A DNA stretch of 32,575 nucleotides from Promethearchaeota archaeon. GTDB lineage: Archaea; Asgardarchaeota; Lokiarchaeia; Sigyniarchaeales; SOKP01. Shown one piece after another: positions 235 through 26,609 of the stretch. The position numbers and the translations under genes are program-made. The notes under the pieces are model-generated. The model saw only the letters and a program-made list of their open reading frames with translations, was not told the origin of the DNA and made no database searches. The stretch lies in assembly GCA_030610785.1 (NCBI GenBank), contig JAUWRB010000004.1, positions 1-32,575 of the forward strand. The letters run 5' to 3'. Within the stretch, counting starts at the first letter, position 1; each line of letters begins with the position of its first letter.

Positions 235-2016
235 ATGAGCGAAGAGATACCAGAACCATGGTTAGATTATTGGCCTGAAGGTGTGCCTCGTCATATTGAT
301 TATGAGGAAAGATCATTAGGTCAAATTTTGCGAAATACGGCTAAAGTGTTCCCAAATTCCCAGGCAATTTATTTTATGGGATGGAGAACAACTTATAAGG
401 AATTAGATACAATGGTAGATAAATTTGCAACTGGACTTTCGAAAATGGGGATTAAAAAAGGAGATGTGGTAGCAATAGATGTGCCTAATGTGCCACAATT
501 CATTATTGCATTCTATGCGATCTGTAGAATTGGTGCGATTGCAAATCCAATCATTCCTTTACATAAATTTGTAGAAATTGCTTATCAAATTAACGATTCA
601 AATAGTAAAGCCATGATTATTTTAGATGCCCTTTATCAAGGTTATTTACATGGTAAGGACCTTTCTAAAATGCCAACCTTAAAGAATGTAATATTAACTG
701 GAATAGCAGAATATTTACCAAAGATTAAAGCAGTATTGGGAACAGCTTTAGGAAAAGTGCCTCAAATGAAAAAGAAATTATGGCCCACTCAAGTAGGAGA
801 CATAAAGTTCAACTCGTTTCAAGATGTTTTACAGAGTGGTGTTCCGATTAATCTGCCGGATGTTAAAATAAATCCTAAGGAAGATACTTCCACATTAATT
901 TACACTGGTGGGACCACAGGAGTACCAAAAGGAGTACAATTATCGCATTATAATTTATCTGTGAATGCTGAACAAGCACTTGCGTGGATTGAGGGTCAAT
1001 TACCAGAAATAAAAAAATCCCGCGGAAAAGGTGGCGTGGGTTGCTTGATTCCTTTCGGTCATGTCTTCGGAATTTCAACAGGGATGAACCTTGGAATTGC
1101 ATCAGGTTACAAACTTATACTCTTTGTTTCGCCTCCGGAAAAAAAATCAGATGTAATAAAGTATTTAATGAAAGAAGACGCTGTATACATCCCGGCAGTG
1201 CCTACGCTCTATAATCAAATAAATCAAGACCCTGATTCAACAAAATACAAGGGAAAATTAACCTCATTAGCCGCTTGTTTGAGTGGTGGTTCTGCCTTAC
1301 CTGCGGAAGTAAAAAGAAAATTTGAAGATATAACAGGAGCACTTATAATTGAGGGGTATGGCGCGAGCGAAACGTCCCCTATTGTAACTGGAGGTCCTTT
1401 CCATAGATATAAAATAAATTCTACAGGTTTACCAATGTCTGATACCTTAATAAAAATTGTAGACGCCGATGAGGGTAATAAACTTTTACCTATATGTCCT
1501 AATGAAAATTGCGATAAATGTGGAGAAGAAGAAGCAGAAAAATATATTGGAGAATTGTGTATAAATGGGCCTCAAATAATGCTAGGATATTTAAATAAAC
1601 CAGAAGATACTAAATATGCGTTAAGGAAAGATTCGAAAGGGCGGATTTGGTATTACTCCTCTGATATTGCGTGTATAGACCGTGAAGGCTATTTACATAT
1701 TAAGGATAGAAAGCGTGATATGATTAAATATAAGGGTCACGGTGTTTTCCCCGCAGAAGTTGAGAATCTAATATATCAAAACGAGGCGGTAAATGAAGTG
1801 GGCGTTATTGGCGTTCCGCATCCAGATGGTGTTGGACAGACTATTAAAGCTTATGTTTCAATTAAAGACGAATACAAAGGCAAGATCACGGAAGAAGACT
1901 TGATGGAATGGTGTAAAGATAACATAAGCCCTTATAAATATCCAAGAATAATAGAATTTTTAGAAGAATTGCCAAAAACTCTTATTGGAAAAATTATAAG
2001 ACGTGAATTAAGGTAG
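235..2016 (+). CDS. AMP-forming acyl-CoA ligase/synthetase (ANL superfamily, long-chain fatty acid-CoA ligase-like)
   Basis: 593 aa; motifs LIYTGGTTGVPKGVQLSH, GYGASETSPIV, YYSSDIACIDREGYLHIKDRKRDMIKYKGHGVFPAEVE, C-terminal LPKTLIGKIIRREL. Confidence 0.93.
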   Translation: MSEEIPEPWLDYWPEGVPRHIDYEERSLGQILRNTAKVFPNSQAIYFMGWRTTYKELDTMVDKFATGLSKMGIKKGDVVAIDVPNVPQFIIAFYAICRIGAIANPIIPLHKFVEIAYQINDSNSKAMIILDALYQGYLHGKDLSKMPTLKNVILTGIAEYLPKIKAVLGTALGKVPQMKKKLWPTQVGDIKFNSFQDVLQSGVPINLPDVKINPKEDTSTLIYTGGTTGVPKGVQLSHYNLSVNAEQALAWIEGQLPEIKKSRGKGGVGCLIPFGHVFGISTGMNLGIASGYKLILFVSPPEKKSDVIKYLMKEDAVYIPAVPTLYNQINQDPDSTKYKGKLTSLAACLSGGSALPAEVKRKFEDITGALIIEGYGASETSPIVTGGPFHRYKINSTGLPMSDTLIKIVDADEGNKLLPICPNENCDKCGEEEAEKYIGELCINGPQIMLGYLNKPEDTKYALRKDSKGRIWYYSSDIACIDREGYLHIKDRKRDMIKYKGHGVFPAEVENLIYQNEAVNEVGVIGVPHPDGVGQTIKAYVSIKDEYKGKITEEDLMEWCKDNISPYKYPRIIEFLEELPKTLIGKIIRRELR

Positions 2017-2059
2017 AATTAAATATTTCTTTTTTTTTTTATATATTTTTATTTTTAAA

Positions 2060-2171
2060 TCACATAATATGGGATCGAACCCTTTACTCATAATTTACGA
2101 ATTATAGTTCAATCAATTTTGATCAATAAAATAAAAAATCTTATGAGTGGATGACTAACTTTGTCCTGTGA
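2060..2171 (-). other. tRNA-like folded element or tRNA remnant (T-arm-like GGGTTCGATCCC)
   Basis: Minus strand: terminal tcaca/tgtga, actcataa/ttatgagt 8-bp stem with large loop, T-arm-like gggttcgatccc; no convincing D-arm. Confidence 0.2.
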
Positions 2172-2377
2172 GATTTTTTTTACTTTTTTTTAACTATTGA
2201 TAAAAAGAAAATAATTTGTAATTAAAGAAGAAATAAATAAATTCCATGAAAAAAAAATTCCTTTAATTTATTATATTTTAATTGAATACCATTTTAAGTT
2301 TTTTTTCATAATATTATTTTAAGAATTTTAATTTATTTCAAAAAATTAAATAAAAAACGCGAAAAAAGAGGATAAAA

Positions 2378-3610
2378 TTGAGAAAAGTAGCAATAATAGG
2401 CGTAGGAATAACTCCCTTCCTATCACGTTATTTGGACAAAACTTATTTTGAACTTGCTTATGACGCCACAAAATTGGCTTTAAATGATTGCAATAAGCAG
2501 GGTATAGAAATAACACACAAAGACCTTGAATCTACAGTATATGGTATATATAATGAATTATTTGAACGTCAGTTCATGCCAGATATTTTTATAAATAGTT
2601 ATATCGGAATGAATGACAAACCTGGAACTAGAATTGCAAGCGGAGGCGCTACAGGTGGTTATACCGTAAGAATGGCATATGCCGAAGTAGCTTCGGGGTT
2701 ATCTGATTTATGTTTATGTCTTGGTGTAGAAAAATGTAATGATTGTTACGACGAAAAAACAGGAGCAACTACACCACAAGTGCTAAATGCGATAGCATAC
2801 TCTGCGGATATGACCTATGAATATCCTATGGGCATGATGGCGGCAAGTTCATATGTTTCAATGGTAAACGCACACTTCGAAGAGTTCGGAAGTCCTTCGG
2901 AAGAACAGATGGCCCTTGTATCAGTTAAAAATCATGGAAACGCAATAAATAATCCAATAGCTCAATCCCCCATGAAAATCACTGTGGAGGATGTAATGAA
3001 TTCAAGAATTATTTGTTATCCGTTTAAAATGCTGGATTGCTGTTTGTATTCAGAAGCATCTGCATGTTTAATATTAGCAAGTGAGCAAAAAGTTAAAGAA
3101 TTAGGAGTAGAAAACCCTATTTGGATAACTGGAGTAGGTGCCGCTAATACTGATTGTTTTATAGGAAATCGTGAAAGCATCGGAAGATTATATTCTAATA
3201 TTAATGCGGCAAAAGCAGCTTACAAAATGGCGGGTCTGGATTATGACAATATCAAGAATCAAATCGATGTTGCAGAGCTTCACGATGCCTTTAGTGGACA
3301 AGAAGTAATTTCTTACGAAGAGTTAGGGTTTGTTCCTTTTGGAGAAGGTGGAAAGTGGATTGAATCGGGTGGACCTGAAATAGGTGGTGAACTACCTTGC
3401 TGTCCAAGTGGAGGCTTAATAGGGTGTGGGCACGCAGTAGGTGCCACTGGCATTATGTCCACAGGTGAAGCAGCTCTTCAATTAAGAGGTGATGCGGATA
3501 AACATCAAGTAACAATTGAAAAAGGGCGGGCTCTTGCTCATTCAATTGGGGGACCTGGAGCTGCGTATGCGGCTATTATTATAATGGAAAACGAGGAGGC
3601 GAAAAAATAA
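2378..3610 (+). CDS. Thiolase-fold protein (SCP-x/lipid-transfer/acetyl-CoA acetyltransferase-like); TTG start
   Basis: 410 aa; MRKVAIIGVGITPF N-terminus, ASGLSDLCLCLGVEKC, VAELHDAFSGQE, GGLIGCGHAVGATG; starts at ttg. Confidence 0.9.
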   Translation: MRKVAIIGVGITPFLSRYLDKTYFELAYDATKLALNDCNKQGIEITHKDLESTVYGIYNELFERQFMPDIFINSYIGMNDKPGTRIASGGATGGYTVRMAYAEVASGLSDLCLCLGVEKCNDCYDEKTGATTPQVLNAIAYSADMTYEYPMGMMAASSYVSMVNAHFEEFGSPSEEQMALVSVKNHGNAINNPIAQSPMKITVEDVMNSRIICYPFKMLDCCLYSEASACLILASEQKVKELGVENPIWITGVGAANTDCFIGNRESIGRLYSNINAAKAAYKMAGLDYDNIKNQIDVAELHDAFSGQEVISYEELGFVPFGEGGKWIESGGPEIGGELPCCPSGGLIGCGHAVGATGIMSTGEAALQLRGDADKHQVTIEKGRALAHSIGGPGAAYAAIIIMENEEAKK

Positions 3611-3612
3611 AA

Positions 3613-4107
3613 ATGGTGTTTCAAGAGCATCAAATACGGGATAAAATTTTAATTGAATATAAATATACTATGGGCGGGCAATCAAAATTCTTCATAGAAT
3701 TGATGAATAATAAAAAGATATTAGGTACCAAATGCCGGAAGTGCAAAAAGGTTTGGTTACCTCCAAGAATTAATTGTTCGGAATGTTATGAAGATACTGA
3801 TTGGATTGAGCTTCCACATACAGGTACCATACAAGTAAGCACGATCGTTTGGTATGGTGCCGCTGCATTTATTCAGAACGTCCCTTATGGCTGTGCCTTC
3901 ATCAAATTAGATAAAGCAGATACCGCAATGTTTCAAGGCGTATTTTCAGAAAATTTGGTTCCTTCTAAACTCAAAAAAGGACAACGAGTTAAAGCAGTAT
4001 TTAAAAAGAAGGAGAATCGAGAAGGAAAAATGACAGACTTCTTTTTTGTCCCTGAGGATGAATGGGAAAGATGGATTAATAAACCAGAATATGAGGGAGG
4101 GGATTAA
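3613..4107 (+). CDS. DUF35 Zn-ribbon/OB-fold acyl-CoA-associated protein
   Basis: 164 aa; CRKCKKVWLPPRINCSEC rubredoxin-like Zn ribbon followed by OB-fold-like C-terminus; 2 nt after the thiolase stop. Confidence 0.9.
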   Translation: MVFQEHQIRDKILIEYKYTMGGQSKFFIELMNNKKILGTKCRKCKKVWLPPRINCSECYEDTDWIELPHTGTIQVSTIVWYGAAAFIQNVPYGCAFIKLDKADTAMFQGVFSENLVPSKLKKGQRVKAVFKKKENREGKMTDFFFVPEDEWERWINKPEYEGGD

Positions 4108-4109
4108 AA

Positions 4110-4481
4110 ATGGGCGTAGCAAGTGAAAACTTAAAACCAATTGTTGAAAAAATGAACACCATAGATAAAGTCAATGCGGTTTTTTATACAAATATTGCAG
4201 GAAATGATGTGAACTGGGACATGACTTTCCAATTTAATTTAAATAACGAAGAACCCTTTTATATTCAAGTAAAAGATCGTAAAGCCAGTCTACTCTCTGG
4301 AACGGCAAGCGATCCTGATATCATATTGACAGGAGATAACAATGCTATTGTGAAAATATGCAATGGTAAAGGTGATTTTACGCATGCAATAAGTCGTGAA
4401 GCGGTAACTGTAACTAAAGGACGGGTTATCGAAGTAATCAGATTAACAAGAGCTATTAACATTGTATTGGGGAAAAAATAA
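4110..4481 (+). CDS. SCP2 sterol-binding/sterol-carrier domain protein
   Basis: 123 aa; WDMTFQFNLNNEEPFYIQVKDRKASLLSGTASDPDIILTGD... SCP2-like pattern; adjacent to DUF35 gene. Confidence 0.85.
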   Translation: MGVASENLKPIVEKMNTIDKVNAVFYTNIAGNDVNWDMTFQFNLNNEEPFYIQVKDRKASLLSGTASDPDIILTGDNNAIVKICNGKGDFTHAISREAVTVTKGRVIEVIRLTRAINIVLGKK

Positions 4482-4733
4482 ATTTTCTAATAAAATCTAA
4501 TCATTTTTTATTTTTATTTTATCTTTTTTTTATTATTTTTTTAAAAACAAAAGCCCTTATTCGTTAACTAATTAATCAATAACATATATCGTTATATTTG
4601 GGTCTTTTTTTTTATGATTTTAAGATTCCAATAATGTTATAATTTTAAATAAAAGTAAATCATTATTAAATTTCAACAGATCATAAGAAATCAATTAAAT
4701 TAAAAACAGTAAATATAAATATAAAAAGAGTGA

Positions 4734-5210
4734 ATGAATGAAATGCTTGAAGAAGACCAAGAGATTTTTATAACGAAAGGTATGGTTCGCGCAGATTTCG
4801 ATTTTTGGGTTGGATTAGTAATGGATAAATTTTACGATGGTCTGCAAGAAAAGAAATTTATTGGTACTAAATGTTCTAAATGCGGAAAAGTTTTCTTGCC
4901 GCCTAGAAATAGATGTGGAGATTGTTTTGTTAAGGCGGAAGAATTTGTAGATTTACCTGAAACAGGGATTTTAAAAAATTTTACTGTTACTACTTATAAA
5001 ATAACCGAGCGAAAAATTAGAAAGGTAAAAAAGGATATTATGGTTGGCTTAGTTCAAGTTGATGGGGCAGATACTGCTATGTTAGTTCCAATAGTAAATA
5101 CAAATCCAGATAATTTAAAAGAAGGAATGAAAGTTAGTGTAGTATGGGCAAAAAAACTAAAAGGTGACCCCCAAGATATTGCGGGTTTTGAGCCTGTTGG
5201 AGATGGTTAA
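4734..5210 (+). CDS. DUF35 Zn-ribbon/OB-fold protein
   Basis: 158 aa; CSKCGKVFLPPRNRCGDC. Confidence 0.9.
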   Translation: MNEMLEEDQEIFITKGMVRADFDFWVGLVMDKFYDGLQEKKFIGTKCSKCGKVFLPPRNRCGDCFVKAEEFVDLPETGILKNFTVTTYKITERKIRKVKKDIMVGLVQVDGADTAMLVPIVNTNPDNLKEGMKVSVVWAKKLKGDPQDIAGFEPVGDG

Positions 5211-5211
5211 A

Positions 5212-6345
5212 ATGGACAAAGTAGGAATAGTCGGATATTACCAAGTTAAACCGGGTTTAGATATAATGATGAGCCCTTATGAAATGATTTTTGAAGCCGT
5301 GAGGGGAGCTTTAGATTACGCTGACCTTAAAAGAAAAGACTTAACAACCGTTATTTCCGCAACTAACGATTATTACGACGGAAAAACCATTTCTAATTGC
5401 TTTAAAGTAGAAGCAGGAGGGGCATACATGAAAGACGAGAGTAAAGTAGAAATGGACGGTGCACATGCAGCAATGTATGGTCTATTTAGAATATTAAGCG
5501 GTAATCATAAGCTTGCAATGATATATGGTATTAGCACGCCCTCTTGTTATCAATATGAATCTGTCCGCGTGTTAGAAAATGATCCCACGTTTGATAGACC
5601 AATTAATCTATTGAATTCCTATACTTCCGGAGGAATGCAAATGAGAGCTTATATGAAGGCATTTGGAATTTCAGAAGAAGATATTGCTAAAGTTGCCGTT
5701 TATAACTTAAAAAACGCTGCTAAAAATCCTCTGGCTTTACCAGAAGCTAAGAAAGCCGATATCACGATTGATGAAGTTTTAAAGTCGGATATATTAAGCA
5801 CACCATTAAGGGAATTAATGTATCCAATGAAATGTGATGGTGCTACTGCGATGATTCTCGCTCCAGAAAGACAAGCTTTAAAAATAACAGATAATCCTGT
5901 ATGGATTATTGGTGTCGGAAATGTCAATGAAACATATTATTTAGGAGATCGAGATTTAAGCGTTAGTTTATCTATGGAAATGGCTGCTGGAAAAGCGTAT
6001 GAAATGGCGGGAATAAAAGATCCTAAAAGTGAAATTGATGTTGCAGAGGTTTTTGGACATACTGCTTGCGAGGATCTAATTATAGCCGAAGCTGCTGGTT
6101 TAACTGATAAGGGGAAAGGTATATCCATGGTTGATAGAGGAAACCTTAATCCATCGGGAGGCACAATGGCGGGATATACTCCGTGTGCAAATGGTCTAAC
6201 AAGGATAGTAGAAGCGGCTAAACAACTCCGTAATGAAGCAGAAGGCCATCAAATAAATGGCGCTAAGATGGCTATTGCTACCGGGCAAGTTGGTTTTTGT
6301 GCCCAGAATAATGTAATATATGTATTGGAGAGAGGTGGAAATTAA
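5212..6345 (+). CDS. Thiolase-fold protein lacking canonical catalytic residues (lipid-transfer/aldolase-like)
   Basis: ORF opens at 5164; internal ATG at 5212 (MDKVGIVGYYQVK) fits the family N-terminus and abuts the DUF35 stop. Confidence 0.85.
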   Translation: MDKVGIVGYYQVKPGLDIMMSPYEMIFEAVRGALDYADLKRKDLTTVISATNDYYDGKTISNCFKVEAGGAYMKDESKVEMDGAHAAMYGLFRILSGNHKLAMIYGISTPSCYQYESVRVLENDPTFDRPINLLNSYTSGGMQMRAYMKAFGISEEDIAKVAVYNLKNAAKNPLALPEAKKADITIDEVLKSDILSTPLRELMYPMKCDGATAMILAPERQALKITDNPVWIIGVGNVNETYYLGDRDLSVSLSMEMAAGKAYEMAGIKDPKSEIDVAEVFGHTACEDLIIAEAAGLTDKGKGISMVDRGNLNPSGGTMAGYTPCANGLTRIVEAAKQLRNEAEGHQINGAKMAIATGQVGFCAQNNVIYVLERGGN

Positions 6346-6346
6346 T

Positions 6347-7591
6347 ATGGCGAAAGTACAACCAGCAATAATAAGTTGCGGTTTTTGTGAACATGCTTCT
6401 AAACGTTCTGATGTGAACATGGCAGAACTGGTTAATGAAGCTGTTGAAGATTGCTTGAAAAAAGCAGGGTCCATAGAGTGGAAAGATATTGATTGTGTTA
6501 TAAATGGTAACATGCCTGCTTTTGAAGGGGCTAACATGCCAGAATTATGGATGACTGACCATATGGCCGCTAAAAATAAACCCCTATTAAGAGTAACCAC
6601 GGGAGGAACCACCGGCGGTTCCGTTTGTATCGCGGGATATTATGCTGTAGCATCCGGATTATATGATACTGTTTTGGCTGTAGCATTCGAACAACAATCG
6701 TGCGGTAATACGACGGTGGGCTTATCATCAGTAGCTTTAGGAGAGATTTCTATTTTTCCTGCTTTAGGATACGATTACGACAGGCTAAAAAGAAATCTAG
6801 GGGCTGGCGCGGCAATTGGGATTGCCTCATATCAAGCAATGAATTACATGAGAAGAAGTAAAGCGACAGAAGAAGATTTAGCGCGTGTTGTCGTCCAAAA
6901 TCGAAGGAATGCTGCAAAGAATTGGTGGACTCATTTAAAAATGCCTACTATAACAATTGATGACGTGTTAGACACTCCTTATATATCATATCCTTTAAGA
7001 TTTGGTATGGTCTGTCCTGCATCAGATGGCGCTTGTGCAATGCTCTTTACAACGGAGGAGAAAGCAAAGCAAATTGCTGATATCCCCGTATATGTAAATG
7101 GTGTTGCAAGCTATAGTAATGAAACTGCTATTGTAGGAATTGACTGTGCAGGTGCTGGTCAAGTTGATCCTTGTGAACAATTAGGCGCCGTGAAATCAGC
7201 TGAAATTGCATATGGGCAAGCGGGTATATCTTTTCCAAATAAAGAAATTGATTACGCCGAAGTATATTCTCCTTTCCCGAATCAAGAATTAATGTGGGTG
7301 GAAAGAGTTGGACTTTTTGAAGAAAATAAAGCTCCTGAAGCGTATAGAAATGGAGTATCGGCTTTTAATGGTGAATTACCAATAAATTGTTCTGGTGGTG
7401 TAAATTCTACGAATGCCATTGGAGCATCGGCAATGGAAAGACCTGCTGAAGCAGCGCTACAAATCATGGGAAAAGCGGGAAATCAAGTTCCTAAAACAGT
7501 ACATACCGCATTAGGACATGGATGGGGTGGCGCAATTAATTTTATAACACATGTGGTAATGTCTGACGAACCACAACGAAAATGGAGGTGA
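6347..7591 (+). CDS. Thiolase-fold protein lacking canonical catalytic residues
   Basis: ORF opens at 6320; likely start ATG 6347 (MAKVQPAIISCGF) after purine-rich gagaggtggaa; GGTTGGSVCIAGYYAVASGLYDTVLAVAFEQ, EIDYAEVYSPF. Confidence 0.87.
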   Translation: MAKVQPAIISCGFCEHASKRSDVNMAELVNEAVEDCLKKAGSIEWKDIDCVINGNMPAFEGANMPELWMTDHMAAKNKPLLRVTTGGTTGGSVCIAGYYAVASGLYDTVLAVAFEQQSCGNTTVGLSSVALGEISIFPALGYDYDRLKRNLGAGAAIGIASYQAMNYMRRSKATEEDLARVVVQNRRNAAKNWWTHLKMPTITIDDVLDTPYISYPLRFGMVCPASDGACAMLFTTEEKAKQIADIPVYVNGVASYSNETAIVGIDCAGAGQVDPCEQLGAVKSAEIAYGQAGISFPNKEIDYAEVYSPFPNQELMWVERVGLFEENKAPEAYRNGVSAFNGELPINCSGGVNSTNAIGASAMERPAEAALQIMGKAGNQVPKTVHTALGHGWGGAINFITHVVMSDEPQRKWR

Positions 7592-7600
7592 AAATATAAA

Positions 7601-8116
7601 ATGCCTTTACCAGATTATGAGAAAAAATCTTATAAAAGAACTAGAACAATGCATGGAAATTGGTATTTAGCAAGTTATCGATATAAGTTTAATTTATCAA
7701 GAACCAAAGTATTTTTAAAAGGACTTGCGAAAGGACATATCTTAGGATTAAAATGTAGGTCCTGTAACACCGTGTCTTTTCCTCCTCGATTAATTTGTGG
7801 ACGATGTTTAGTAAAACCCGATCAATGGGTTCGATTACCTGAAACAGCCAGTGTTTCTACATTTTCAGCTAATTACGATGCAGACGATAAAAATAGAGAG
7901 AGACCATATCCGATTGTAGCAGTACAACAAGATGGTACCGACACTGTTTGGGTTCATAATCTTACGGATAAATTCGATTTTCATGATGTCTATGTCGGCA
8001 TGCCTTTAAAAGCTGTATGGGCTGAAGAGCGAAAAGGTATATGGATGGATATAGACCATTACGAGCCCATTGAAGATCCGGCAATTGAGCTTAACAAAAA
8101 AGAAGAAGAAATGTGA
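7601..8116 (+). CDS. DUF35 Zn-ribbon/OB-fold protein
   Basis: 171 aa; CRSCNTVSFPPRLICGRC. Confidence 0.9.
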   Translation: MPLPDYEKKSYKRTRTMHGNWYLASYRYKFNLSRTKVFLKGLAKGHILGLKCRSCNTVSFPPRLICGRCLVKPDQWVRLPETASVSTFSANYDADDKNRERPYPIVAVQQDGTDTVWVHNLTDKFDFHDVYVGMPLKAVWAEERKGIWMDIDHYEPIEDPAIELNKKEEEM

Positions 8117-8234
8117 AATGGGTTAAAATCAGTTTTGAAAAATTGTTATAAATTTTTTTTTTTCTTTATTTATTTTTAAAAGAAATTTTATTCATAGTAT
8201 TTATTAATTTTTATTCAATTTGTTTTAATATATT

Positions 8235-9788
8235 ATGGAACAAAAAAAAATTAATGAAAACGATGTGATTTCAACCTATCCTATTATTGTTATTGGTGCA
8301 GGTCTCGGAGGACTCGGAGCGGCGTGCCAACTCGGTCTCCTAGGAAAAAAAGTATTGTTACTCGAGAAAAATAACGTGCCGGGAGGGTTTGCGACATCTT
8401 TTGTTCGAGGTAGATTCGAATTTGAAGGAGCATTACACGAATTAAGTGATATTGGTACAGAAGATAATAAAGGGACTCTTTATAGATTTTTTGAGAAAAT
8501 AGGAGTAATTCCTGATAAATTAAAGTTTAAACAAGTTCCGGAATTTTATCGAAGCGTTTTTTTAGATGGATACGATGTCACGATGCCTCTTGGCTTTGAA
8601 TCATATACTAATAAATTAATCGAGTTGTTTCCTGCCGAACAAAAGGGAATAGAAGAATTCATGAAAATGTGCAAAGCAGTGCTAGAAGGAATTAAATTTA
8701 TTGCTTCTAAAGGAGGGAAATATTCGCCCGCAGAAGTCCTAAAAGAACATCCGTGGGTAGCGCGCATCTCTGGTCTAACGCTCTCAGAAGTGTTTGAGAA
8801 ATTTTTTAAAGACAAAAAATTAATGGCAATTATAGGTCAATTATGGGGTTATGTAGGGTTGCCCCCAGCCAGAATAAATGCTTATGCCTTTATTGCCATG
8901 TTAATATTTTATTTAAATTGGGGTGCTGTTTTTCCAATTGGACGGTCTCACGCATTAACAAGCTCAATGCTGAAAGCTTTTCAAGATTTAGGCGGTGAAG
9001 TAAGGTTTAATGCTTTAGTGGATCGTATCCTCGTGGAAAATAACAGAGCGTGCGGAGTTAAACTTCTTAACGGCGATATTTATCGTTGCGAGGCGGTTTT
9101 TTCAAACGTGAATCCTATATGCACGGTAATGAAAATGCTTCCACGTGAAGTTGTACCGGATAGCTATAAAAAAAGCGTTTATTCTCCACAAATTGGTCCC
9201 TCAGCCTTTTCAGTATATTTGGGAATTAATGCTTCTCATAAAAAATTAGGATTAAATGCTCATGAAACTTTTATCAACGCAACATGGGATGTAGATGATG
9301 CTTTTGAATCTTTTATGAAATTAGAACCACCAAAATATATGGTCGCAGCGTGTTATAATCATGTGTATGAAAATATATCTCCCCCGGGAACAACTCAACT
9401 TGTTCTCACTACGCTCCAAATGGGCAAGCTTTGGCAAAGTATCTCTCCCGATCAATACAACCGAGTGAAGGATGAAATTGCAGGGAAGATGATTGATCTG
9501 GTAGAACAGACAATAAGCCCGAATATTCGCGATTACTTGGAGGTTGCAGTTGTAGCAACACCGCTCACATATTATCGCTACTCGAAAAACATGGAAGGAG
9601 CAATATATGGTTATACACAAGATATCTTAAACGGGCCATTACTTAGATTAAAAAGCAGGGGAGCAATACCTGGACTATATCAAGTGGGTGCATGGACAAA
9701 TTTCGGAGGAGGCTTCTCAACATCGATTCTAGGTGGGAGAATCGCCGCAGGCATGTATTTAAGAGATAAAAAACAAGGGAGATGGTAA
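8235..9788 (+). CDS. CrtI/phytoene desaturase-like FAD-dependent oxidoreductase
   Basis: 517 aa; Rossmann PIIVIGAGLGGLGAACQLGLLGKKVLLLEKNNVPGGFATSF; C-terminal GLYQVGAWTNFGGGFSTSILGGRIAAG. Confidence 0.9.
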   Translation: MEQKKINENDVISTYPIIVIGAGLGGLGAACQLGLLGKKVLLLEKNNVPGGFATSFVRGRFEFEGALHELSDIGTEDNKGTLYRFFEKIGVIPDKLKFKQVPEFYRSVFLDGYDVTMPLGFESYTNKLIELFPAEQKGIEEFMKMCKAVLEGIKFIASKGGKYSPAEVLKEHPWVARISGLTLSEVFEKFFKDKKLMAIIGQLWGYVGLPPARINAYAFIAMLIFYLNWGAVFPIGRSHALTSSMLKAFQDLGGEVRFNALVDRILVENNRACGVKLLNGDIYRCEAVFSNVNPICTVMKMLPREVVPDSYKKSVYSPQIGPSAFSVYLGINASHKKLGLNAHETFINATWDVDDAFESFMKLEPPKYMVAACYNHVYENISPPGTTQLVLTTLQMGKLWQSISPDQYNRVKDEIAGKMIDLVEQTISPNIRDYLEVAVVATPLTYYRYSKNMEGAIYGYTQDILNGPLLRLKSRGAIPGLYQVGAWTNFGGGFSTSILGGRIAAGMYLRDKKQGRW

Positions 9789-9791
9789 AAA

Positions 9792-11003
9792 ATGGAAAAA
9801 GATGTAATGAAAGATATAATGAATGATGTAAAAAAATATCAAAAAGCTGAAAAATTGAAAAAATGGCGCGATGAGGTTGAACCAATACCTTGGTATTTCG
9901 ATGGATTGGAAAATCTTTGCGATAGAATCCATCCCGGAAAACTTTTTCTACAAGTATCGGATGTGAAACAACTTTCTTTGGACACAAAACTGTTCCGATT
10001 CATTTCTGCAAAGCCTAAAAAATTATTGGCACCATTCCGCTCAGGACAATACATCGGTCTCACGGTTGAAATTAACAACATAAAAACATCTCGCCCTTAC
10101 TCGCTCGCATCGTCTCCTAATCAGCTTGCGTATTATGAATTGGGTATAAAAAAGAAAGAAGGTGGCTTCGTAAGTCCCTATTTGTTTGAAAATTTAAAAG
10201 TCGGTGACATTTTAGAATCTACTGAACCCATGGGAAATTTTTATCATAACCCCATTTTTCACGGGAATGATTTAGTTTTCATAGCAGGTGGAAGCGGTAT
10301 TACTCCCTTCGTTTCAATACTAAGGGACATTTCTGAGCGAGTTTTACCTTTAAATGTCTGGCTATTTTTTGGTTGTTTAACAGAAAAAGATATTTTATTT
10401 CGAGATGAATTAGATGAAATTCAGGAGCGACGCCCTAACATCAAAATTAAATATATTCTTTCGGAACCCAAACCAGAATGGACTGGAGCCCGTGGTTTTA
10501 TCTCAAAAGAGGAGATTTTAAATAAAATTGGCTCGATCAAAGGTAAGTTCTTTTATATTGTTGGAAATCGAGCAATGTATCAATTCATACAAGCAGAATT
10601 ACAGGCATTGGAAATTTCAAGACATAGAATTATTTACGAGGCATATGGTGTACCTGACGATGTTACCAAAATTATGGGATGGCCTGAGGAGATTGACGCG
10701 TCTAAAAAAATTCATATTACTGTTGATTTAATTCGAAAAGGCAAAAAAGAAACAGCAATCATCGAGGCGTCGTGTGTTGAACCACTTTTGAATAGTCTCG
10801 AACGAGCAAGGATACTGGGATATCAACTCGATAATGGCTGTCGTTCGGGTGAATGCGCTCTTTGCAGAACTAAAATGCGATCAGGCAAGATCTTTGTCCC
10901 TCCAGAAGTAATAATTCGAGAAAGCGATCAAGAATTTGGTTTTATACACCCGTGCGTATCTTACCCAATTTCTGATGTACATATTGATTTATCTTTAACT
11001 TAA
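9792..11003 (+). CDS. Ferredoxin-NAD(P) reductase-type oxidoreductase with C-terminal plant-type [2Fe-2S] domain
   Basis: 403 aa; SRPYSLASSP, FIAGGSGITPFVSILRD, C-terminal CRSGECALCRTK...HPCVSYP. Confidence 0.92.
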   Translation: MEKDVMKDIMNDVKKYQKAEKLKKWRDEVEPIPWYFDGLENLCDRIHPGKLFLQVSDVKQLSLDTKLFRFISAKPKKLLAPFRSGQYIGLTVEINNIKTSRPYSLASSPNQLAYYELGIKKKEGGFVSPYLFENLKVGDILESTEPMGNFYHNPIFHGNDLVFIAGGSGITPFVSILRDISERVLPLNVWLFFGCLTEKDILFRDELDEIQERRPNIKIKYILSEPKPEWTGARGFISKEEILNKIGSIKGKFFYIVGNRAMYQFIQAELQALEISRHRIIYEAYGVPDDVTKIMGWPEEIDASKKIHITVDLIRKGKKETAIIEASCVEPLLNSLERARILGYQLDNGCRSGECALCRTKMRSGKIFVPPEVIIRESDQEFGFIHPCVSYPISDVHIDLSLT

Positions 11004-12780: not shown

Positions 12781-12942
12781 AAATTGTGAATTTTATAGAA
12801 ATTTATAAATTTTTATAAATAGTAATAAGGTTGTCAATCATCTTGAATTATGAATTTAAATGAACTTTAAAGCGATTCATATTTATTATACATATATGGG
12901 GAAAAGTTTCCCATTGTAATTATTAGTTAAAGTGGATATAAA

Positions 12943-14283
12943 ATGGAATATAACTATTTCGATGAGAAGCGTGAAAAAACTCCTTGGGCTGATTTAGAAA
13001 CAAAATTTATCAAGAACGGAAAAATTATTCTTCAAAATTTGTATAATAATGTTCATGCTTTAAAAAAAAGGTATCAAGAAGCGGGAATTACGCCGGACGA
13101 TATCAAATCTGTGGAAGACTTTAAAAAAGTTCCATTCATGAATAAGAGCGATTTTTTAGACAGCTTCCCAAATAAATTAGTATGTGTTCCCATGGATCAG
13201 ATTGTTCGCATGCACGCAACAAGCGGGACTTCAGGACATCGACCTACTTGTGGATATTATACTCAAAATGATTTAGATAATTGGAGTTATTTATGTGCTC
13301 GGAACTTAGGTGCCATTGGCATGACAAAGAAAGATGTTTTTCAAAATACAACGTCTGCGGGGTTATTTACAGGTGGTTTTGGCTATGCTCAAGGATGTAC
13401 TTTAGTAGGGGCAATGTTAATTCCATTCGGCCCAGGAAAAACCGCAAGGCAGCTTGAATTTTTTCAGACGTTTAAAGTTACCGCGTTTCATGCGATTCCT
13501 TCTTTTGGATTAAGAATTGCAGAAGTAATGGAAGAAGAAGGAATTAAGAAAGAAGATTTATTTCTTAAATACGCTATTGTCGGCGCTGAGGGATGGGCAG
13601 AATCAACACGAAAGACTATTGAAGGCCGTTTAGGGGTAAAAGCTTACGACAATTATGGCTTAACAGAGGCATGCGGTCCTGGAGTTTCTGTAGAATGCCA
13701 GGAACAAAACGGTTTACATTTATGGACCGATTTTTTTTATCCTGAAATAATAGATCCAAAAACAGGAGAAGTCTTAGGAGAAGGAGAAACTGGCGAATTA
13801 GTTTTAACAAGTCTTTGGAAGGAAGCTTTACCAATTTTTAGATACCGAACTGGAGATATAACATCATTAAGAAAAAGCGAGTGTCCTTGTGGAAGAACGG
13901 GTTATATTATGGAGCGTATTAAAGGACGGAAGGACGATATGCACGTGTTAAAAGGTGTAAATATTTATCCCAGCATGCTTGAAGAAGAAATTTTTAATTT
14001 ATCAAACTATTTTACTGACGTGTATTTAATTGTATATCACACGATAGGTGTTTACGATGAAGTAACGATTAATGTTGAAGTTAAACCAGGAGTAGATAAG
14101 GTTAAAGCAAAAGCAGAATTAGAAAAGAATTTACTTGAGGCCACGATGATTAGAATAAATGTTACAGTATTCGATCCTAATACTCTTCCTCGTCAAGAAG
14201 GAAAAGCTATTCGCACTAAAGACATTCGAGATCGTCCAGATGGATATAAAGGATGGTTAAAAATGATGAACCACGAAAAATGA
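12943..14283 (+). CDS. Phenylacetate-CoA ligase-like (PaaK family) AMP-forming ligase
   Basis: 446 aa; HATSGTSGHRPTCGYYT, YDNYGLTEACGPG, YRTGDIT, CPCGRTGYIMERIKGRKDDMHVLKGVNIYPS, LPRQEGKAIR. Confidence 0.9.
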   Translation: MEYNYFDEKREKTPWADLETKFIKNGKIILQNLYNNVHALKKRYQEAGITPDDIKSVEDFKKVPFMNKSDFLDSFPNKLVCVPMDQIVRMHATSGTSGHRPTCGYYTQNDLDNWSYLCARNLGAIGMTKKDVFQNTTSAGLFTGGFGYAQGCTLVGAMLIPFGPGKTARQLEFFQTFKVTAFHAIPSFGLRIAEVMEEEGIKKEDLFLKYAIVGAEGWAESTRKTIEGRLGVKAYDNYGLTEACGPGVSVECQEQNGLHLWTDFFYPEIIDPKTGEVLGEGETGELVLTSLWKEALPIFRYRTGDITSLRKSECPCGRTGYIMERIKGRKDDMHVLKGVNIYPSMLEEEIFNLSNYFTDVYLIVYHTIGVYDEVTINVEVKPGVDKVKAKAELEKNLLEATMIRINVTVFDPNTLPRQEGKAIRTKDIRDRPDGYKGWLKMMNHEK

Positions 14284-16700: not shown

Positions 16701-17063
16701 TTTTTTTCAATTTTTTTTAATTTTTTTTTTAAAATGGGAAATATTTCCCACTCATTTTTTAAATTTAATGAAATAATTTATATTTAAAATTATAAAAACC
16801 TTTTTGTTTTTTAGGGTTAAACGGTGTTTCAAATTTCAATTATTGATTATAAATTAATAAAAAACCATATTTTTTTAATTCTTAAGAAACGAAAGGACTT
16901 TTTTAATTTTAATTTACACCCGAATTATTTTATATAATTAATGATTCATTCCTATCATGGGTTAGTGAAAATATCCCTTAAAAATGAAAAAATTTTAATA
17001 GTGAAATATGTTAATTTTTTTCATAAATCGTTAAAAGAAAAATTCATTAAGAGATGCTTAAAA

Positions 17064-18371
17064 ATGACAATTTATTGGAATGAAAAAGCTGAATGCATGC
17101 CTCAAGAAGAGTTAAAAAAATTACAAGGGGAGAAATTAAAAAAATTTGCCCATTATGTCTATAATAATGTTGATTTTTATCACAAAAAGTTTGACGAACT
17201 TAGAATTAAACCCGAAGATATAAAAAGCGTTAACGATATAACAAAACTTCCTCTTACTTATAAAACCGATTTAAGAGACAATTATCCGTTTAATTTAAAC
17301 GCTGTTCCCATGGGAGAAATAATCAGAATTCACGCTTCGTCAGGCACGACTGGTAAACCTACGGTTGTATCATACACTCGAAAGGACATCAGTGACTGGA
17401 CCGAGATCATGGCAAGAACCGTAATGGCTTCCGGAATAACTCATGAGGATGTTGTTCAAAATGCGTATGGTTATGGTTTATTTACTGGTGGACTTGGTTT
17501 TCATTATGGTGCTGAAAAAGTTGGTTGTTCTGTAATTCCTATTTCGGGAGGTAACACTCAACGACAATTAATGATAATGCAAGATTTTAAATCGACTGTT
17601 CTAACATGTACTCCTAGTTATGCGTTATATATTGCAGAATATGCCAAGAAAGAGGGTATTGATGTTTCAAAATTAGCTCTTAAAAAAGCAATCTGCGGGG
17701 CAGAGCCATGGAGTGATAATTTGAGGAAAACTATTGAAGCGGAATTAGAGATCGATGCGTACGATATTTATGGTCTAAGTGAGATTTATGGACCAGGAGT
17801 ATCTATAGAGTGTGAAGAAAAAAACGGAATGCATGTATGGGAGGACTTTTTTATTGTTGAAGTGTTAGATAGAAAGACTCATGAGCCTGTTGAGCCCGGA
17901 GAAGAGGGAGTTCTCGCCTTTACGACTCTAGAAAAAACAGGCATGCCTTTATTACGTTATATCACTTATGATATAGCAACAATCAACAAAGAAAAATGTT
18001 CCTGCGGGAGAACTTGTTGCCGAATGAGCAAGGTAACTGGTCGAGCTGACGACATGTTAATAGTTAGAGGTATTAACGTGTTTCCTTCCCAGGTAGAAGC
18101 GGCCTTAATGACCATACCTGGTGTAGCCGGTTATTATCAAATTATAATAGATCGAGATATAATAGATTCTCTCTCAGTTCAAGTTGAATTGACTGCTGAC
18201 ACATTTTCAGACGAGATGAAAGTACTGGAGAACTTCAAAAGAGATATTGAATTAAAACTATATAACATTCTTCAAGTAAGAGCGAGCGTAGAATTAGTTG
18301 CTCCAGGAACTCTTCCGCGAACTGAGGGAAAAGCCAAGCATGTTATTGATAAAAGAACCAAAAATATATAG
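17064..18371 (+). CDS. Phenylacetate-CoA ligase-like (PaaK family)
   Basis: ORF opens at 16941; family N-terminus MTIYWNEKAECMP at 17064; HASSGTTGKPTVVSYT, YDIYGLSEIYGPG, CSCGRTCCRMSKVTGRADDMLIVRGINVFPSQ, LPRTEGKAKH. Confidence 0.92.
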   Translation: MTIYWNEKAECMPQEELKKLQGEKLKKFAHYVYNNVDFYHKKFDELRIKPEDIKSVNDITKLPLTYKTDLRDNYPFNLNAVPMGEIIRIHASSGTTGKPTVVSYTRKDISDWTEIMARTVMASGITHEDVVQNAYGYGLFTGGLGFHYGAEKVGCSVIPISGGNTQRQLMIMQDFKSTVLTCTPSYALYIAEYAKKEGIDVSKLALKKAICGAEPWSDNLRKTIEAELEIDAYDIYGLSEIYGPGVSIECEEKNGMHVWEDFFIVEVLDRKTHEPVEPGEEGVLAFTTLEKTGMPLLRYITYDIATINKEKCSCGRTCCRMSKVTGRADDMLIVRGINVFPSQVEAALMTIPGVAGYYQIIIDRDIIDSLSVQVELTADTFSDEMKVLENFKRDIELKLYNILQVRASVELVAPGTLPRTEGKAKHVIDKRTKNI

Positions 18372-19332: not shown

Positions 19333-19510
19333 ATGTGATTCTTTTCATTATTAAATTTCTTACTATTCGTAAGAAGTAATATTAAAAATTATTGTTAATT
19401 TTTTTATTAAACAACATGTTCAGATTATTTAATAAAAAGCGTATTCATTTTATTTAAAAAAATAATTTACTTGATAATTAATGGGACTGCAGCTCAGCCG
19501 TAAAACTAAC

Positions 19511-20371
19511 ATGAAGAGTGAAAATAAATTTTTCGAAAAAGATAATTATAACGCGTTATGTGTGGGAATTGGCGGCACAGGAGTAATTAGTGCATCCATA
19601 ATTTTAGGCTGGGCAGCGCTTCAAGAGGGGTTTAAAGTAAGAACTGCTGAAACTCACGGCATGAGTCAGAGGGGCGGTTCAGTTTCGTCTTATTTAAGAT
19701 TTGGAAAGAATTTAGAAAGTCCTTTCATGGTAGAGGGCGATTTGGACGTTCTTTTAGCGTTTGAAATTTCTGAAGGTTTAAGAAGCCTACGCTTTACAAA
19801 CAAAAATACTTTTATTATCGCATCGAAAAATACCGTAATTCCTCCATCTGTTTTAACCCATAAATCTTTGAAAATTGATGGAAATAAATGCGTTGGTTGT
19901 GGGAATTGTGTAGCGCACTGTCTCCCGAATCAAATTTATAACGAAAAGGGTGAAAAAAACTATTACACGTTAATGAAAGGGCCAACTCGAAAGGTTATTA
20001 ACGGATATTCAACAGTTTTAGAATCTTGTACAGGATGCGTTCAATGTGTCATTGATAATGTTTGTCCTTTTGGAGCAATAGAAGCATTTAATGAATGGGA
20101 ATATCCAGATGTTAAATTAATTGAAGAAGATATTAAATCTGTGTCTAACAATGTAATACTATTAGATGCTAATTCAATAGCAATAAAAGTTGGTAATATT
20201 TTAACCGCAAATGTAATACTTTTAGGGATTTTAGCAGGCGTACAGAAAATTCCACTTTCTCCAAATATTTTAAGAGAAACTGTAAAAAAATTTGTCCCGA
20301 AAAAAGCCTTGGATGTTAATGTTAAAGCTTTTGATATCGGTTTTGACATTGGTATAAATAATAAAAAATAA
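19511..20371 (+). CDS. iorB: Indolepyruvate:ferredoxin oxidoreductase beta subunit with internal 2x[4Fe-4S] insertion
   Basis: GIGGTGVISASIILGWAALQEGFKVRTAETHGMSQRGGSVSSYLRFG; internal CVGCGNCVAHC and CTGCVQCVIDNVCP; ILLDANSIAIKVGNILTANVILLGILAG. Alternative start 19481. Confidence 0.87.
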   Translation: MKSENKFFEKDNYNALCVGIGGTGVISASIILGWAALQEGFKVRTAETHGMSQRGGSVSSYLRFGKNLESPFMVEGDLDVLLAFEISEGLRSLRFTNKNTFIIASKNTVIPPSVLTHKSLKIDGNKCVGCGNCVAHCLPNQIYNEKGEKNYYTLMKGPTRKVINGYSTVLESCTGCVQCVIDNVCPFGAIEAFNEWEYPDVKLIEEDIKSVSNNVILLDANSIAIKVGNILTANVILLGILAGVQKIPLSPNILRETVKKFVPKKALDVNVKAFDIGFDIGINNKK

Positions 20372-20393
20372 TTATATGAAGTGGTATTAAACA

Positions 20394-25441: not shown

Positions 25442-26609
25442 ATGTTAAATACTAATAAACTAAAAGTAGGAGTCATTGGATGCGGAGTTGTAGCAAAAAA
25501 TGGTCATTTACCGTGGTATCATCGATCTCCTCTTGTTGATATTAAAGCTATTGCTGATCCGGACATTTCGCGTTTAAATAGCATTCAGAAGCTATATCAT
25601 GTCGAAAAACAGTATGAGAATCCAGAAGACTTAATTGATGATCCAGAAATCGACGCTATCAGCATATGTTCTCCTCATTGGGTTCATATGGAGCAAGTAA
25701 TTAGAGCGGCAAAAAATGGAAAGCATATTTTGTGCGAAAAACCGATAGGAATTGATTTGAAAGAAGTAGATGACATGATCAGTAGTAGAGCATAATGATG
25801 TTATCTTTCAAACTGCTACGCAGAAAAGGTTTGATCAAGGCTTTCAAATGATAAAGGAAAACCTCATGAAAGAAAAGCTAGGTATGGTTTTTCACGCTTC
25901 AATTTATTGGTATCATTTCACTCCGGATTTAGAATCGAAATGGGTTCGAAGAGGATTAGATTTCTTTAAAAAATTAGGTATAGATATGGAAAAAGATCAA
26001 GGAGCATGGAGGCTAACTGATAAACGATGTGGAGGCGGCGACTTCTTGGATCATGGTCCACATTATATTGATTTATTGCGATGGTGGTTTGGTAATATTG
26101 ATACAATAAGTGCCCATGTGAGGAGAACCCATAAAAGCAGAGTATTTGAGGACCATTCTGCTGCCTTGTTTTCATTCAAGCAAAATGATATTATTGCCGT
26201 ATTCGAGCGATCTTCAAACATTATTGGACGTTTAAACGGCCAAGAACTAGGACGAATACACGGAACCAAGGGGTCTTATTATTTTTCTTTGCCTCACGAA
26301 ATTAAATTAGCACCAATGACATTAAAAAAATATACTTGGAAAAATATTCTTAGAGATAAACCTAAAATAATTAAAACGAAATTTCCTAAAGATCCTTGGG
26401 ATTTATCTTATGCAAGAGAAGTTCGGAGTTTTATAAATCAAGTGTTGGGACGCTCAAATGAGGATGTGAATTTTCCGGAAGAATGAATCCCAACTATTCA
26501 CGATGGGAGAGCTGCTTTAGAGGCAGTTCTGTCTGTTTATGAATCTTCAAGGCTTCAGCAAACCGTTAAATTACCATTAAAAAGTTACACTCCTATTGAT
26601 TTGTCTTGA
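25442..26609 (+). pseudogene. Gfo/Idh/MocA-family oxidoreductase, frameshifted and with an in-frame stop
   Basis: 25442-25795 (KVGVIGCGVVAKNGHLPWYHRSPLVDIKAIADPD; HILCEKPIG) continues at +1 (NDVIFQTATQKRFDQGFQMIKE) in 25848-26486, then TGA 26484-26486, then in-frame IPTIHDGRAALEAVLSVYESSRLQQTVKLPLKSYTPIDLS*. Confidence 0.85.

What the first reader, a model, noticed from the sequence alone, without database searches (positions are those of the whole stretch)
235..11003. Candidate new lipid/acyl-CoA C-C lyase or ligase system: acyl-CoA ligase + 3 Cys-less thiolase folds + 3 DUF35 + SCP2 + CrtI-like + FNR
Seen: one strand, tight spacing (2-14 nt) at several junctions, three thiolase-fold/DUF35 partners, an SCP2 carrier and two redox genes. 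Hand alignment at the expected nucleophile (consensus CASGGxA...AxxAIxSG): thiolase 1 reads GATGGYTVRMAYAEVASG (Gly at the Cys position), thiolase 2 reads EMDGAHAAMYGLFRILSG, thiolase 3 reads GTTGGSVCIAGYYAVASG; none has the Cys. Known: thiolase-fold/DUF35 complexes include archaeal acetoacetyl-CoA thiolase-HMGCS assemblies, BbsAB of anaerobic toluene degradation, and Ltp2-ChsH2 retro-aldolases. Inference: a multi-subunit carbon-carbon bond machine for a hydrophobic acid or isoprenoid, more likely aldolase-like than Claisen-type, perhaps with the CrtI-like/FNR pair supplying redox steps. No acyl-CoA dehydrogenase, enoyl-CoA hydratase or 3-hydroxyacyl-CoA dehydrogenase is visible here, so it is not a self-contained beta-oxidation operon.
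Basis: partly seen in the sequence, partly recalled or inferred. Interest (0 to 1): 0.75.

Follow-up and report, generated by a model that had tools for sequence, protein, structure and literature searches.

The report
Cysteine-less thiolase/DUF35 aldolase-like cluster, Lokiarchaeia
A Lokiarchaeal gene cluster encodes three thiolase-shaped enzymes that have lost the thiolase catalytic cysteine; together with their small zinc-finger partners they look like an archaeal relative of the bacterial enzymes that snip branched sterol side chains by retro-aldol cleavage, probably used to take apart branched lipids without oxygen.

Summary
All ten genes are present, and all three thiolase folds carry Gly where the nucleophilic Cys should be. 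The cluster consists of separable modules: T1-DUF35-SCP2; DUF35-T2-T3-DUF35; CrtI-FNR; and an acyl-CoA ligase. These modules co-locate in related Lokiarchaeal genomes. In relatives the 'missing' enoyl-CoA hydratase and acyl-CoA dehydrogenase sit inside or beside them, but no 3-hydroxyacyl-CoA dehydrogenase lies within 20 kb. T2/T3 are homologues of actinobacterial Ltp4/Ltp3, the proposed heteromeric aldol-lyase for branched sterol side chains. T3 has an invariant Tyr where Ltp2 and Sal have their catalytic base. Best explanation: a DUF35-clamped T2-T3 retro-aldolase in an aldolytic side-branch of beta-oxidation. Substrate and direction are unproven; branched/isoprenoid acids are a guess. T1 keeps His-Asp-Ala-Phe and Gly-His and is a second, different Cys-less enzyme. 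Verdict: a new variant of a known kind, moderately interesting. Side finding: ~30-nt hairpin inserts that fit bulge-helix-bulge introns interrupt several of these genes in Lokiarchaeal genomes.

The parts
235..2016 (+). long-chain acyl-CoA ligase (AMP-binding), 593 aa
   Evidence: PF00501 E 9.8e-76, PF13193; best NCBIfam long-chain-fatty-acid--CoA ligases, below their cut-offs; a 64% homologue lies in the same neighbourhood in L044
2378..3610 (+). T1: Cys-less thiolase fold, 410 aa, TTG start; G90 at the Cys position, H302-D303-A304-F305 and G351-H352 kept
   Evidence: AlphaFold model pTM 0.85, thiolase fold
2645..2647 (+). T1 codon 90 (Gly) at the nucleophile position
   Evidence: aligned with the Cys of 7yvy and 6esq
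3613..4107 (+). D1: DUF35 (zf-ChsH2 + OB_ChsH2_C), partner of T1
   Evidence: PF01796 and PF12172; next to T1 in the intact Lokiarchaeal relatives
4110..4481 (+). SCP2 sterol-carrier-like protein, 123 aa
   Evidence: PF02036; follows T1-D1 in most Lokiarchaeal relatives
4734..5210 (+). D2: DUF35, first gene of the D2-T2-T3-D3 unit
5212..6345 (+). T2: Cys-less thiolase fold, Ltp4-like, VEMDG motif, probable partner subunit
6347..7591 (+). T3: Cys-less thiolase fold, Ltp3-like, proposed catalytic subunit
   Evidence: model pTM 0.85, fold matches
6605..6607 (+). T3 Gly86 (counted from codon 6350) at the nucleophile position, invariant
7265..7267 (+). T3 Tyr306 (counted from codon 6350), invariant; column of Ltp2 Tyr294 and Sal Tyr302
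   Evidence: PMC12329534
7601..8116 (+). D3: DUF35, last gene of the D2-T2-T3-D3 unit
8235..9788 (+). CrtI/CrtISO-superfamily FAD oxidoreductase, 517 aa
   Evidence: TIGR02734 156 bits and TIGR02730 152 bits, both below cut-off; nearest solved 4dgk phytoene dehydrogenase
9792..11003 (+). NAD(P)H-flavin reductase with C-terminal [2Fe-2S] domain (PaaE/BenC type), 403 aa
   Evidence: PF00970, PF00175, PF00111; TIGR02160 131 bits, below cut-off; follows CrtI in relatives

Best explanation
D2-T2-T3-D3 is a heteromeric, DUF35-clamped, cysteine-independent retro-aldolase of the Ltp3/Ltp4 type. It works in an aldolytic variant of beta-oxidation of a hydrophobic, probably branched, acid in an anaerobic Lokiarchaeon. 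Proposed order: (1) the ligase makes the acyl-CoA (inferred from family). (2) An acyl-CoA dehydrogenase makes the 2-enoyl-CoA (inferred; the gene is adjacent in relatives, elsewhere in this genome). (3) An enoyl-CoA hydratase makes the 3-hydroxyacyl-CoA (inferred; same). (4) T3, paired with T2 and two DUF35 proteins, removes the proton of the 3-OH with Tyr306 while the Gly86 loop binds the substrate; C2-C3 breaks, giving a short acyl-CoA (via its enolate) and an aldehyde or ketone. No acyl-enzyme forms, so no Cys is needed. T1-D1 is a second Cys-less enzyme of different active-site type (His-Asp-Ala-Phe plus Gly-His kept), either for another chain length or another enolate reaction. SCP2 may carry the hydrophobic intermediate; CrtI-FNR probably adds or removes C=C electrons. 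Shown here: gene content, residue changes, kinship, paired inheritance, co-location. Inferred: chemistry, direction, substrate. Retro-aldol cleavage would let a cell get past a beta-methyl branch, which blocks normal thiolysis; this is why isoprenoid or sterol-like acids are plausible.
For: Cys to Gly in all three with fold kept. CtSal also has Gly there, cannot do thiolysis, and cleaves by retro-aldol with a Tyr base (PMC12329534). T3 Tyr306 is invariant in 22 and 24 diverse sequences, the first set including actinobacterial Ltp3, in the column of the HDAF/HDCF His, which in Ltp2 is Tyr294 and in Sal Tyr302. T2 groups with Ltp4 (95/90) and T3 with Ltp3 (99/98). NCBIfam: T3 best = PRK08313 (378.9 bits), T2 second best = PRK07937 (175.5); Tsukamurella Ltp3/Ltp4 score above cut-off in the same two models. 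Tsukamurella and S. clavuligerus carry one gene with two DUF35 OB domains, then Ltp4, then Ltp3, in Tsukamurella next to an AMP ligase and a crotonase and, about 7 kb on, a steroid 3-ketoacyl-CoA thiolase. Ltp3-Ltp4 is described as a heteromeric aldol-lyase for C24-branched sterols (PMC6678751; also PMC6273163). T2 and T3 distances correlate, r = 0.85, 0 of 5000 permutations, with three pairs from this one genome. Relatives place ligase and ECH between D3 and CrtI (L041, L042) and ACAD next to D2 (L107, L110, L111, L116). 0 of 66 strong 3-hydroxyacyl-CoA dehydrogenase genes lie within 20 kb of the modules, against 15 of 135 ACADs, Fisher p = 0.003. Fe-type alcohol dehydrogenases, usable for an aldehyde, lie nearby in L041, L111 and in this genome's second locus L088.
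Against: T3 lacks the Asp of the Y-D-x-F motif (it reads Y-S-P-F), and the general acid is not identified (Ltp2 Tyr344 and Sal Cys304 were not mapped to an acid in T3). T2's column is variable (F/S/Y/H). No enzyme of the Ltp3/Ltp4 group has been assayed in the sources read; that role rests on knock-outs. T2/T3 fall below the curated NCBIfam cut-offs. The ACAD/HAD comparison includes related genomes, so its p value overstates independence. Outside Lokiarchaeia the D-T-T-D unit often has no beta-oxidation neighbours. In the window there is no ECH or ACAD. T1's HDAF is thiolase-like, not aldolase-like.
Confidence: 0.57

Rival explanations
1. The same complex runs in the condensing direction: a Cys-independent aldol (or decarboxylative) condensation of an acyl-CoA enolate with an aldehyde or ketone in lipid or isoprenoid biosynthesis, with CrtI-FNR reducing C=C.
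For: FNR with [2Fe-2S] usually delivers NAD(P)H electrons (family knowledge), which suits a reductive step; CrtI/CrtISO kinship; aldol reactions are reversible.
Against: Neighbouring acyl-CoA ligase, ACAD and ECH are a catabolic set; the nearest genetically characterised relatives are catabolic.
Confidence: 0.15
2. A carotenoid/isoprenoid modification cluster centred on CrtI-FNR, with the thiolase folds acting on the resulting acids.
For: CrtI-FNR is paired in relatives and lies within 40 kb of T2 paralogues in 12 of 16 genomes and of T1 in 9 of 15.
Against: CrtI scores below the cut-offs of all characterised carotenoid families; no carotenoid synthesis genes were seen beside it; Lokiarchaeal genomes hold many CrtI-like paralogues.
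Confidence: 0.1
3. Ordinary Claisen thiolases with a relocated Cys nucleophile (for T1 the nearly invariant Cys350 next to His352).
For: Cys350 is conserved in more than 90% of T1-like sequences.
Against: No common Cys in T2/T3 at an active-site motif; bacterial T1-like relatives share Gly at the nucleophile position; Cys350 takes the place of Arg or Ala before GH in true thiolases.
Confidence: 0.08
4. Catalytically dead thiolase folds serving as lipid-binding or scaffold proteins, as the old name 'lipid-transfer protein' implies.
For: T2 has lost both Cys and His and varies at the base position.
Against: T1 and T3 keep invariant polar residues at the active site over great distances; Ltp2 and Sal, also once called lipid-transfer proteins, are active aldolases.
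Confidence: 0.07
5. Unrelated neighbours in a metabolic island, without a joint function.
For: Wide gaps separate the blocks, and modules are often apart in other genomes.
Against: Repeated co-location of the modules in several genera, in L041 and L042 all on one strand.
Confidence: 0.03

Closest known systems
Ltp3-Ltp4 with a two-domain DUF35 protein (actinobacterial C24-branched sterol side-chain aldol-lyase)
   Same: gene order DUF35, Ltp4/T2, Ltp3/T3; two DUF35 domains per T2-T3 pair; VEMDG in T2/Ltp4; Y-x-P-F and Asn for His in T3/Ltp3; ligase and crotonase neighbours
   Different: DUF35 domains on two genes that flank the pair; about 28-40% identity to the window proteins; below curated cut-offs; anaerobic archaeal host; extra T1-DUF35-SCP2 and CrtI-FNR modules
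Ltp2-ChsH2 and Sal-Shy steroid retro-aldolases (6ok1, 9myr)
   Same: thiolase fold, Gly for Cys, DUF35 partner, Tyr in the HDCF column (T3)
   Different: homodimeric thiolase part, MaoC hydratase fused to the DUF35, Y-D-[HC]-[FY] instead of Y-S-P-F; much lower profile scores (T3 112 bits for the PRK07855 lipid-transfer model against 379 for PRK08313)
ST0096 of Sulfolobus tokodaii (4yzo), thiolase-like protein of unknown function
   Same: archaeal, Cys-less (Ser aligned), among the nearest solved structures
   Different: groups beside the true archaeal thiolases, not with T2 or T3; keeps HDMA and GHP
archaeal acetoacetyl-CoA thiolase-DUF35-HMG-CoA synthase (6esq) and BbsAB (7pxp)
   Same: thiolase fold with DUF35 proteins
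   Different: both keep the Cys nucleophile in the alignments and do Claisen chemistry
PhlABC acyltransferase (5m3k)
   Same: thiolase fold plus DUF35 in one complex
   Different: works through Cys88 (own knowledge; a C88S entry is listed) and has a third, PhlA subunit, not found here

Membership tests
SCP2-type thiolase (Claisen) | nucleophilic Cys in the CASG motif | tested here: not met
   Gly in T1, T2, T3
SCP2-type thiolase (Claisen) | HD[AC]F and GH catalytic motifs | tested here: inconclusive
   kept in T1 (HDAF, GH), lost in T2 (FGHT, Gly-Tyr) and T3 (YSPF, Asn)
Ltp2/Sal DUF35-dependent retro-aldolase | Gly in place of the nucleophilic Cys, thiolase fold | tested here: met
   Sal Gly from PMC12329534
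Ltp2/Sal DUF35-dependent retro-aldolase | Y-D-[HC]-[FY] motif with Tyr base | tested here: inconclusive
   T3: Tyr invariant but Asp absent (YSPF); T1 has His, T2 Phe
Ltp2/Sal DUF35-dependent retro-aldolase | DUF35 fused to a MaoC hydratase | tested here: not met
   DUF35 proteins of 158-171 aa without MaoC; the hydratase in relatives is ECH_1
Ltp3-Ltp4-DUF35 system | adjacent pair in the Ltp4 and Ltp3 clades | tested here: met
   clades 95/90 and 99/98
Ltp3-Ltp4-DUF35 system | score above curated NCBIfam cut-off of PRK08313 / PRK07937 | tested here: not met
   378.9 of 514 and 175.5 of 419 bits; Tsukamurella 734 and 593
Ltp3-Ltp4-DUF35 system | two DUF35 domains per pair | tested here: met
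   D2 and D3 flank the pair; two OB stretches in the actinobacterial protein
Ltp3-Ltp4-DUF35 system | acyl-CoA ligase and enoyl-CoA hydratase neighbours | tested here: inconclusive
   ligase in window; hydratase only in relatives, e.g. L041, L042, L094
Ltp3-Ltp4-DUF35 system | aldol-lyase activity | not testable with these tools
   needs enzyme assay
CrtI phytoene desaturase / CrtISO | score above curated cut-off | tested here: not met
   156 of 238 and 152 of 587 bits

The most novel reading that the evidence does not exclude
Lokiarchaeia degrade beta-branched isoprenoid or sterol-like acids anaerobically by a thiolase-free route. In it, ligase, dehydrogenase and hydratase feed two different Cys-less thiolase-fold/DUF35 aldolases (T2-T3 and T1), and CrtI-FNR handles double bonds. 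This would be a second way, besides thiolysis, to shorten lipids in archaea.
Probability: 0.2. Interest if true: 0.75.

Novelty: new variant of a known kind. Interest (0 to 1): 0.48.

Why it matters
If true, it extends aldolytic side-chain cleavage, known in aerobic steroid degraders, to anaerobic archaea near the eukaryote stem. It suggests how branched (for example isoprenoid) lipids, which stop normal beta-oxidation, could be broken down in anoxic sediment. The four-gene D-T-T-D unit and its variants, present also in Methanolliviera, Dehalococcoidia and Deltaproteobacteria, give a compact target for enzymology of the poorly assayed Ltp3/Ltp4 class. The likely introns seen in relatives would, if confirmed, widen known archaeal pre-mRNA splicing and warn that these genes are easily miscalled as broken.

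Tried and rejected
In-frame TGA/TAA in thiolase homologues as selenocysteine: rejected for the TGA cases, where the ORF maps show full-length 377-aa ORFs, so the match ran past the normal stop; the TAA cases turned out to be hairpin inserts. Function from bacterial neighbourhoods of D-T-T-D: mostly housekeeping neighbours, uninformative. Asgard + thiolase + DUF35 literature: none in the library. Lokiarchaeal isoprenoid degradation papers: no direct hit. A bulge-helix-bulge scan of the window itself gave only low-complexity A/T hits.
Full report
WHAT IS THERE. The window is contig C103 of a 2.97-Mb metagenome-assembled genome. Its closest named relatives, by T2 at 72-82% identity, are Candidatus Lokiarchaeota/Lokiarchaeia MAGs. 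Ten + strand genes lie at 235-11003: ligase, T1, D1, SCP2, D2, T2, T3, D3, CrtI-like, FNR. Gaps inside the blocks T1-D1-SCP2, D2-T2-T3-D3 and CrtI-FNR are 1-9 nt; between blocks they are 361, 252 and 118 nt.

NO CYSTEINE. Alignments to solved thiolases place Gly at the nucleophile in T1 (G90), T2 (G84) and T3 (G86). In the wider set it is Gly in 19/19 close T1, 33/33 close T2 and all 68 T3-type sequences. The three differ otherwise. T1 keeps H302-D303-A304-F305 and G351-H352. T3 has Y306-S-P-F and Asn for the second His; Y306, G86 and N355 are invariant in 22 diverse sequences including actinobacterial Ltp3, and in a second set of 24. T2 has F-G-H-T and Tyr for the second His, variable in its family, but an invariant Asp83 just before Gly84. 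Models of T3 and T1 are thiolase folds (pTM 0.85 each) and match thiolases, Ltp2 and others (Sal is listed for T1).

KINSHIP. In a tree of 48 sequences T2 falls with Ltp4 (95/90) and T3 with Ltp3 (99/98); T1 is in a separate clade near the true archaeal thiolases. The T2 and T3 trees mirror each other (r = 0.85, 0 of 5000 permutations), with three different pairs from this single genome (window, L088, L089). T2 and T3 are thus inherited as pairs. Actinobacterial plasmid records have the same arrangement: a two-OB-domain DUF35 gene, Ltp4, Ltp3, in Tsukamurella beside an AMP ligase and a crotonase, with a cytochrome P450 and a steroid 3-ketoacyl-CoA thiolase about 7 kb further on. A review names Ltp3-Ltp4 as the heteromeric aldol-lyase that cuts C24-C25 of branched sterol side chains (PMC6678751), and another paper cites their essentiality for branched chains only (PMC6273163). 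The review rests on a 2012 Rhodococcus study that I could not read. That the Tsukamurella and Streptomyces genes are Ltp3/Ltp4 themselves is my assignment from the NCBIfam models and gene order, not from a named record.

CONTEXT. In L041 and L042 (the second the same locus as L094) all modules stand on one strand: T1-D1-SCP2 ... D2-T2-T3-D3-ligase-ECH-CrtI-FNR; in L167, L168, L169 and L171 T1-D1-SCP2 is followed by ligase-ECH-CrtI-FNR. The hydratase is PF00378. An ACAD is next to D2 in L107, L110, L111, L116 and L043 and another type near T1 in L166 and L180. This genome itself has 6 ACAD and 17 ECH matches. Over 12 genomes, 0 of 66 strong 3-hydroxyacyl-CoA dehydrogenase (PF02737) genes but 15 of 135 ACAD genes lie within 20 kb of these modules (Fisher p = 0.003). 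The genomes are related, so this is supporting evidence, not proof. SDR-type dehydrogenases were not counted. Missing ketone-forming dehydrogenase, missing Cys, and present hydratase point the same way: cleavage at the 3-hydroxyacyl-CoA stage.

MECHANISM. In Ltp2 and Sal a Tyr in the HDCF column takes the proton of the beta-hydroxyl, a Gly replaces the Cys and (in Sal) its backbone amide contacts the hydroxyl, and no thiolysis is possible (PMC12329534). T3 has the Tyr and the Gly. It lacks the motif's Asp, and its general acid is unknown. I therefore propose T3 as the catalytic subunit and T2 as a partner that may supply Asp83 near the dimer interface (inference), with one DUF35 per thiolase fold (inference from the Sal and Ltp2 complexes). 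T1-D1 is a distinct Cys-less type shared with Chloroflexi and Deltaproteobacteria; its chemistry is open. The CrtI-FNR pair is outside characterised carotenoid families. NAD(P)H-fed reduction of a C=C is more likely than NAD+-linked acyl-CoA desaturation on redox grounds (general knowledge).

SUBSTRATE. Not determined. A beta-branch blocks ketone formation and favours retro-aldol cleavage, so isoprenoid or sterol-like acids are reasonable, and archaeal lipids are one source in sediment. This is inference only.

SIDE FINDING. While checking 'broken' homologues I found inserts of 29-31 nt with stop codons or frameshifts in otherwise intact genes: T1 of L041/L042/L170, a T3 paralogue in five genomes including this one (L088 4522-4551), ACAD in the conserved KMGE-IYEGTSE motif in three genomes, and a 450-aa gene of L039. 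Most fit a bulge-helix-bulge intron: the last exon-1 bases before a two-base overhang pair with the intron end, the intron body forms a hairpin, and the cuts implied by intronless homologues fall after the second base of each bulge (definition in PMC6379350 and PMC2738675). For two of the three ACAD copies the fit needs the junction moved by one base, which also restores the conserved Glu; that is my reading, not a program result. In the T3 paralogue all 65 pair cells hold over five genomes, with two pairs changed on both sides; slid controls give 31-45%. Site b of T1 in L042 and the insert in L126 do not fit. The genome has two splicing-endonuclease genes, compatible with a hetero-oligomeric enzyme. 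As of 2009 only cbf5 pre-mRNA splicing was confirmed in archaea; I found no paper on such introns in Asgard archaea in this library, which does not show that none exists.

VERDICT. It is a new variant of the Ltp3/Ltp4-like DUF35 aldolase kind in Lokiarchaeia.

Noticed in passing
L088 4522-4551 (complement; window's own genome, contig C74), L162 3047-3076, L163 5704-5733 (complement), L207, L213; T1 in L042 3722-3750 and L041 6087-6115, L170 (complement, about 12894-12970); ACAD in L216-L218; L039 16468-16498: 29-31-nt hairpin inserts with stops or frameshifts in otherwise intact genes; most fit bulge-helix-bulge introns with cuts after the second bulge base, and the structure is conserved with two-sided changes in five genomes. 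The genome has two splicing-endonuclease genes. Possible pre-mRNA introns in Lokiarchaeal metabolic genes; needs RNA evidence.
   Followed up: partly
L042 3907-3936, L126 near 15898: Two further 30-nt inserts with stops (T1 site b; another gene) that do not fit the canonical bulge-helix-bulge rule.
   Followed up: partly
L069, L070, L071, L074, L081, L083, L084 and others: Chloroflexi, Deltaproteobacteria and Firmicutes carry a T1-like Cys-less enzyme (about 41% identity, HDAF and GH kept) followed by a 330-390-aa protein with a DUF35-type zinc ribbon; ACAD and AMP ligase lie nearby in L084.
   Followed up: partly
L039, L109, L123, L126, L127, L162: A beta-keto acid cleavage enzyme (PF05853), a 473-aa thiolase-like protein and a 200-aa protein without Pfam match recur near the T2/T3 modules or their paralogues in Lokiarchaeal genomes.
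   Followed up: no
L048; L045, L047, L051: The T2-T3 pair with DUF35 genes also occurs in Candidatus Methanolliviera hydrocarbonicum, Deltaproteobacteria, an unnamed bacterium and Dehalococcoidia, at 45-49% identity in T2.
   Followed up: partly
window 25442-26486: An oxidoreductase-like gene is split into 117 + 212 aa by what looks like a simple frameshift, not a hairpin insert.
   Followed up: partly
window 27788-28567: A glycoside-hydrolase-like ORF ends early, with no continuation in the next few hundred bases.
   Followed up: no
window 12943-14283, 16941-18371, 19481-22268, 30281-31804: Downstream: two phenylacetate-CoA-ligase-type genes, what look like an indolepyruvate ferredoxin oxidoreductase pair and two ACT-like proteins, and a second CrtI-like oxidoreductase, suggesting amino-acid fermentation beside the cluster.
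   Followed up: no
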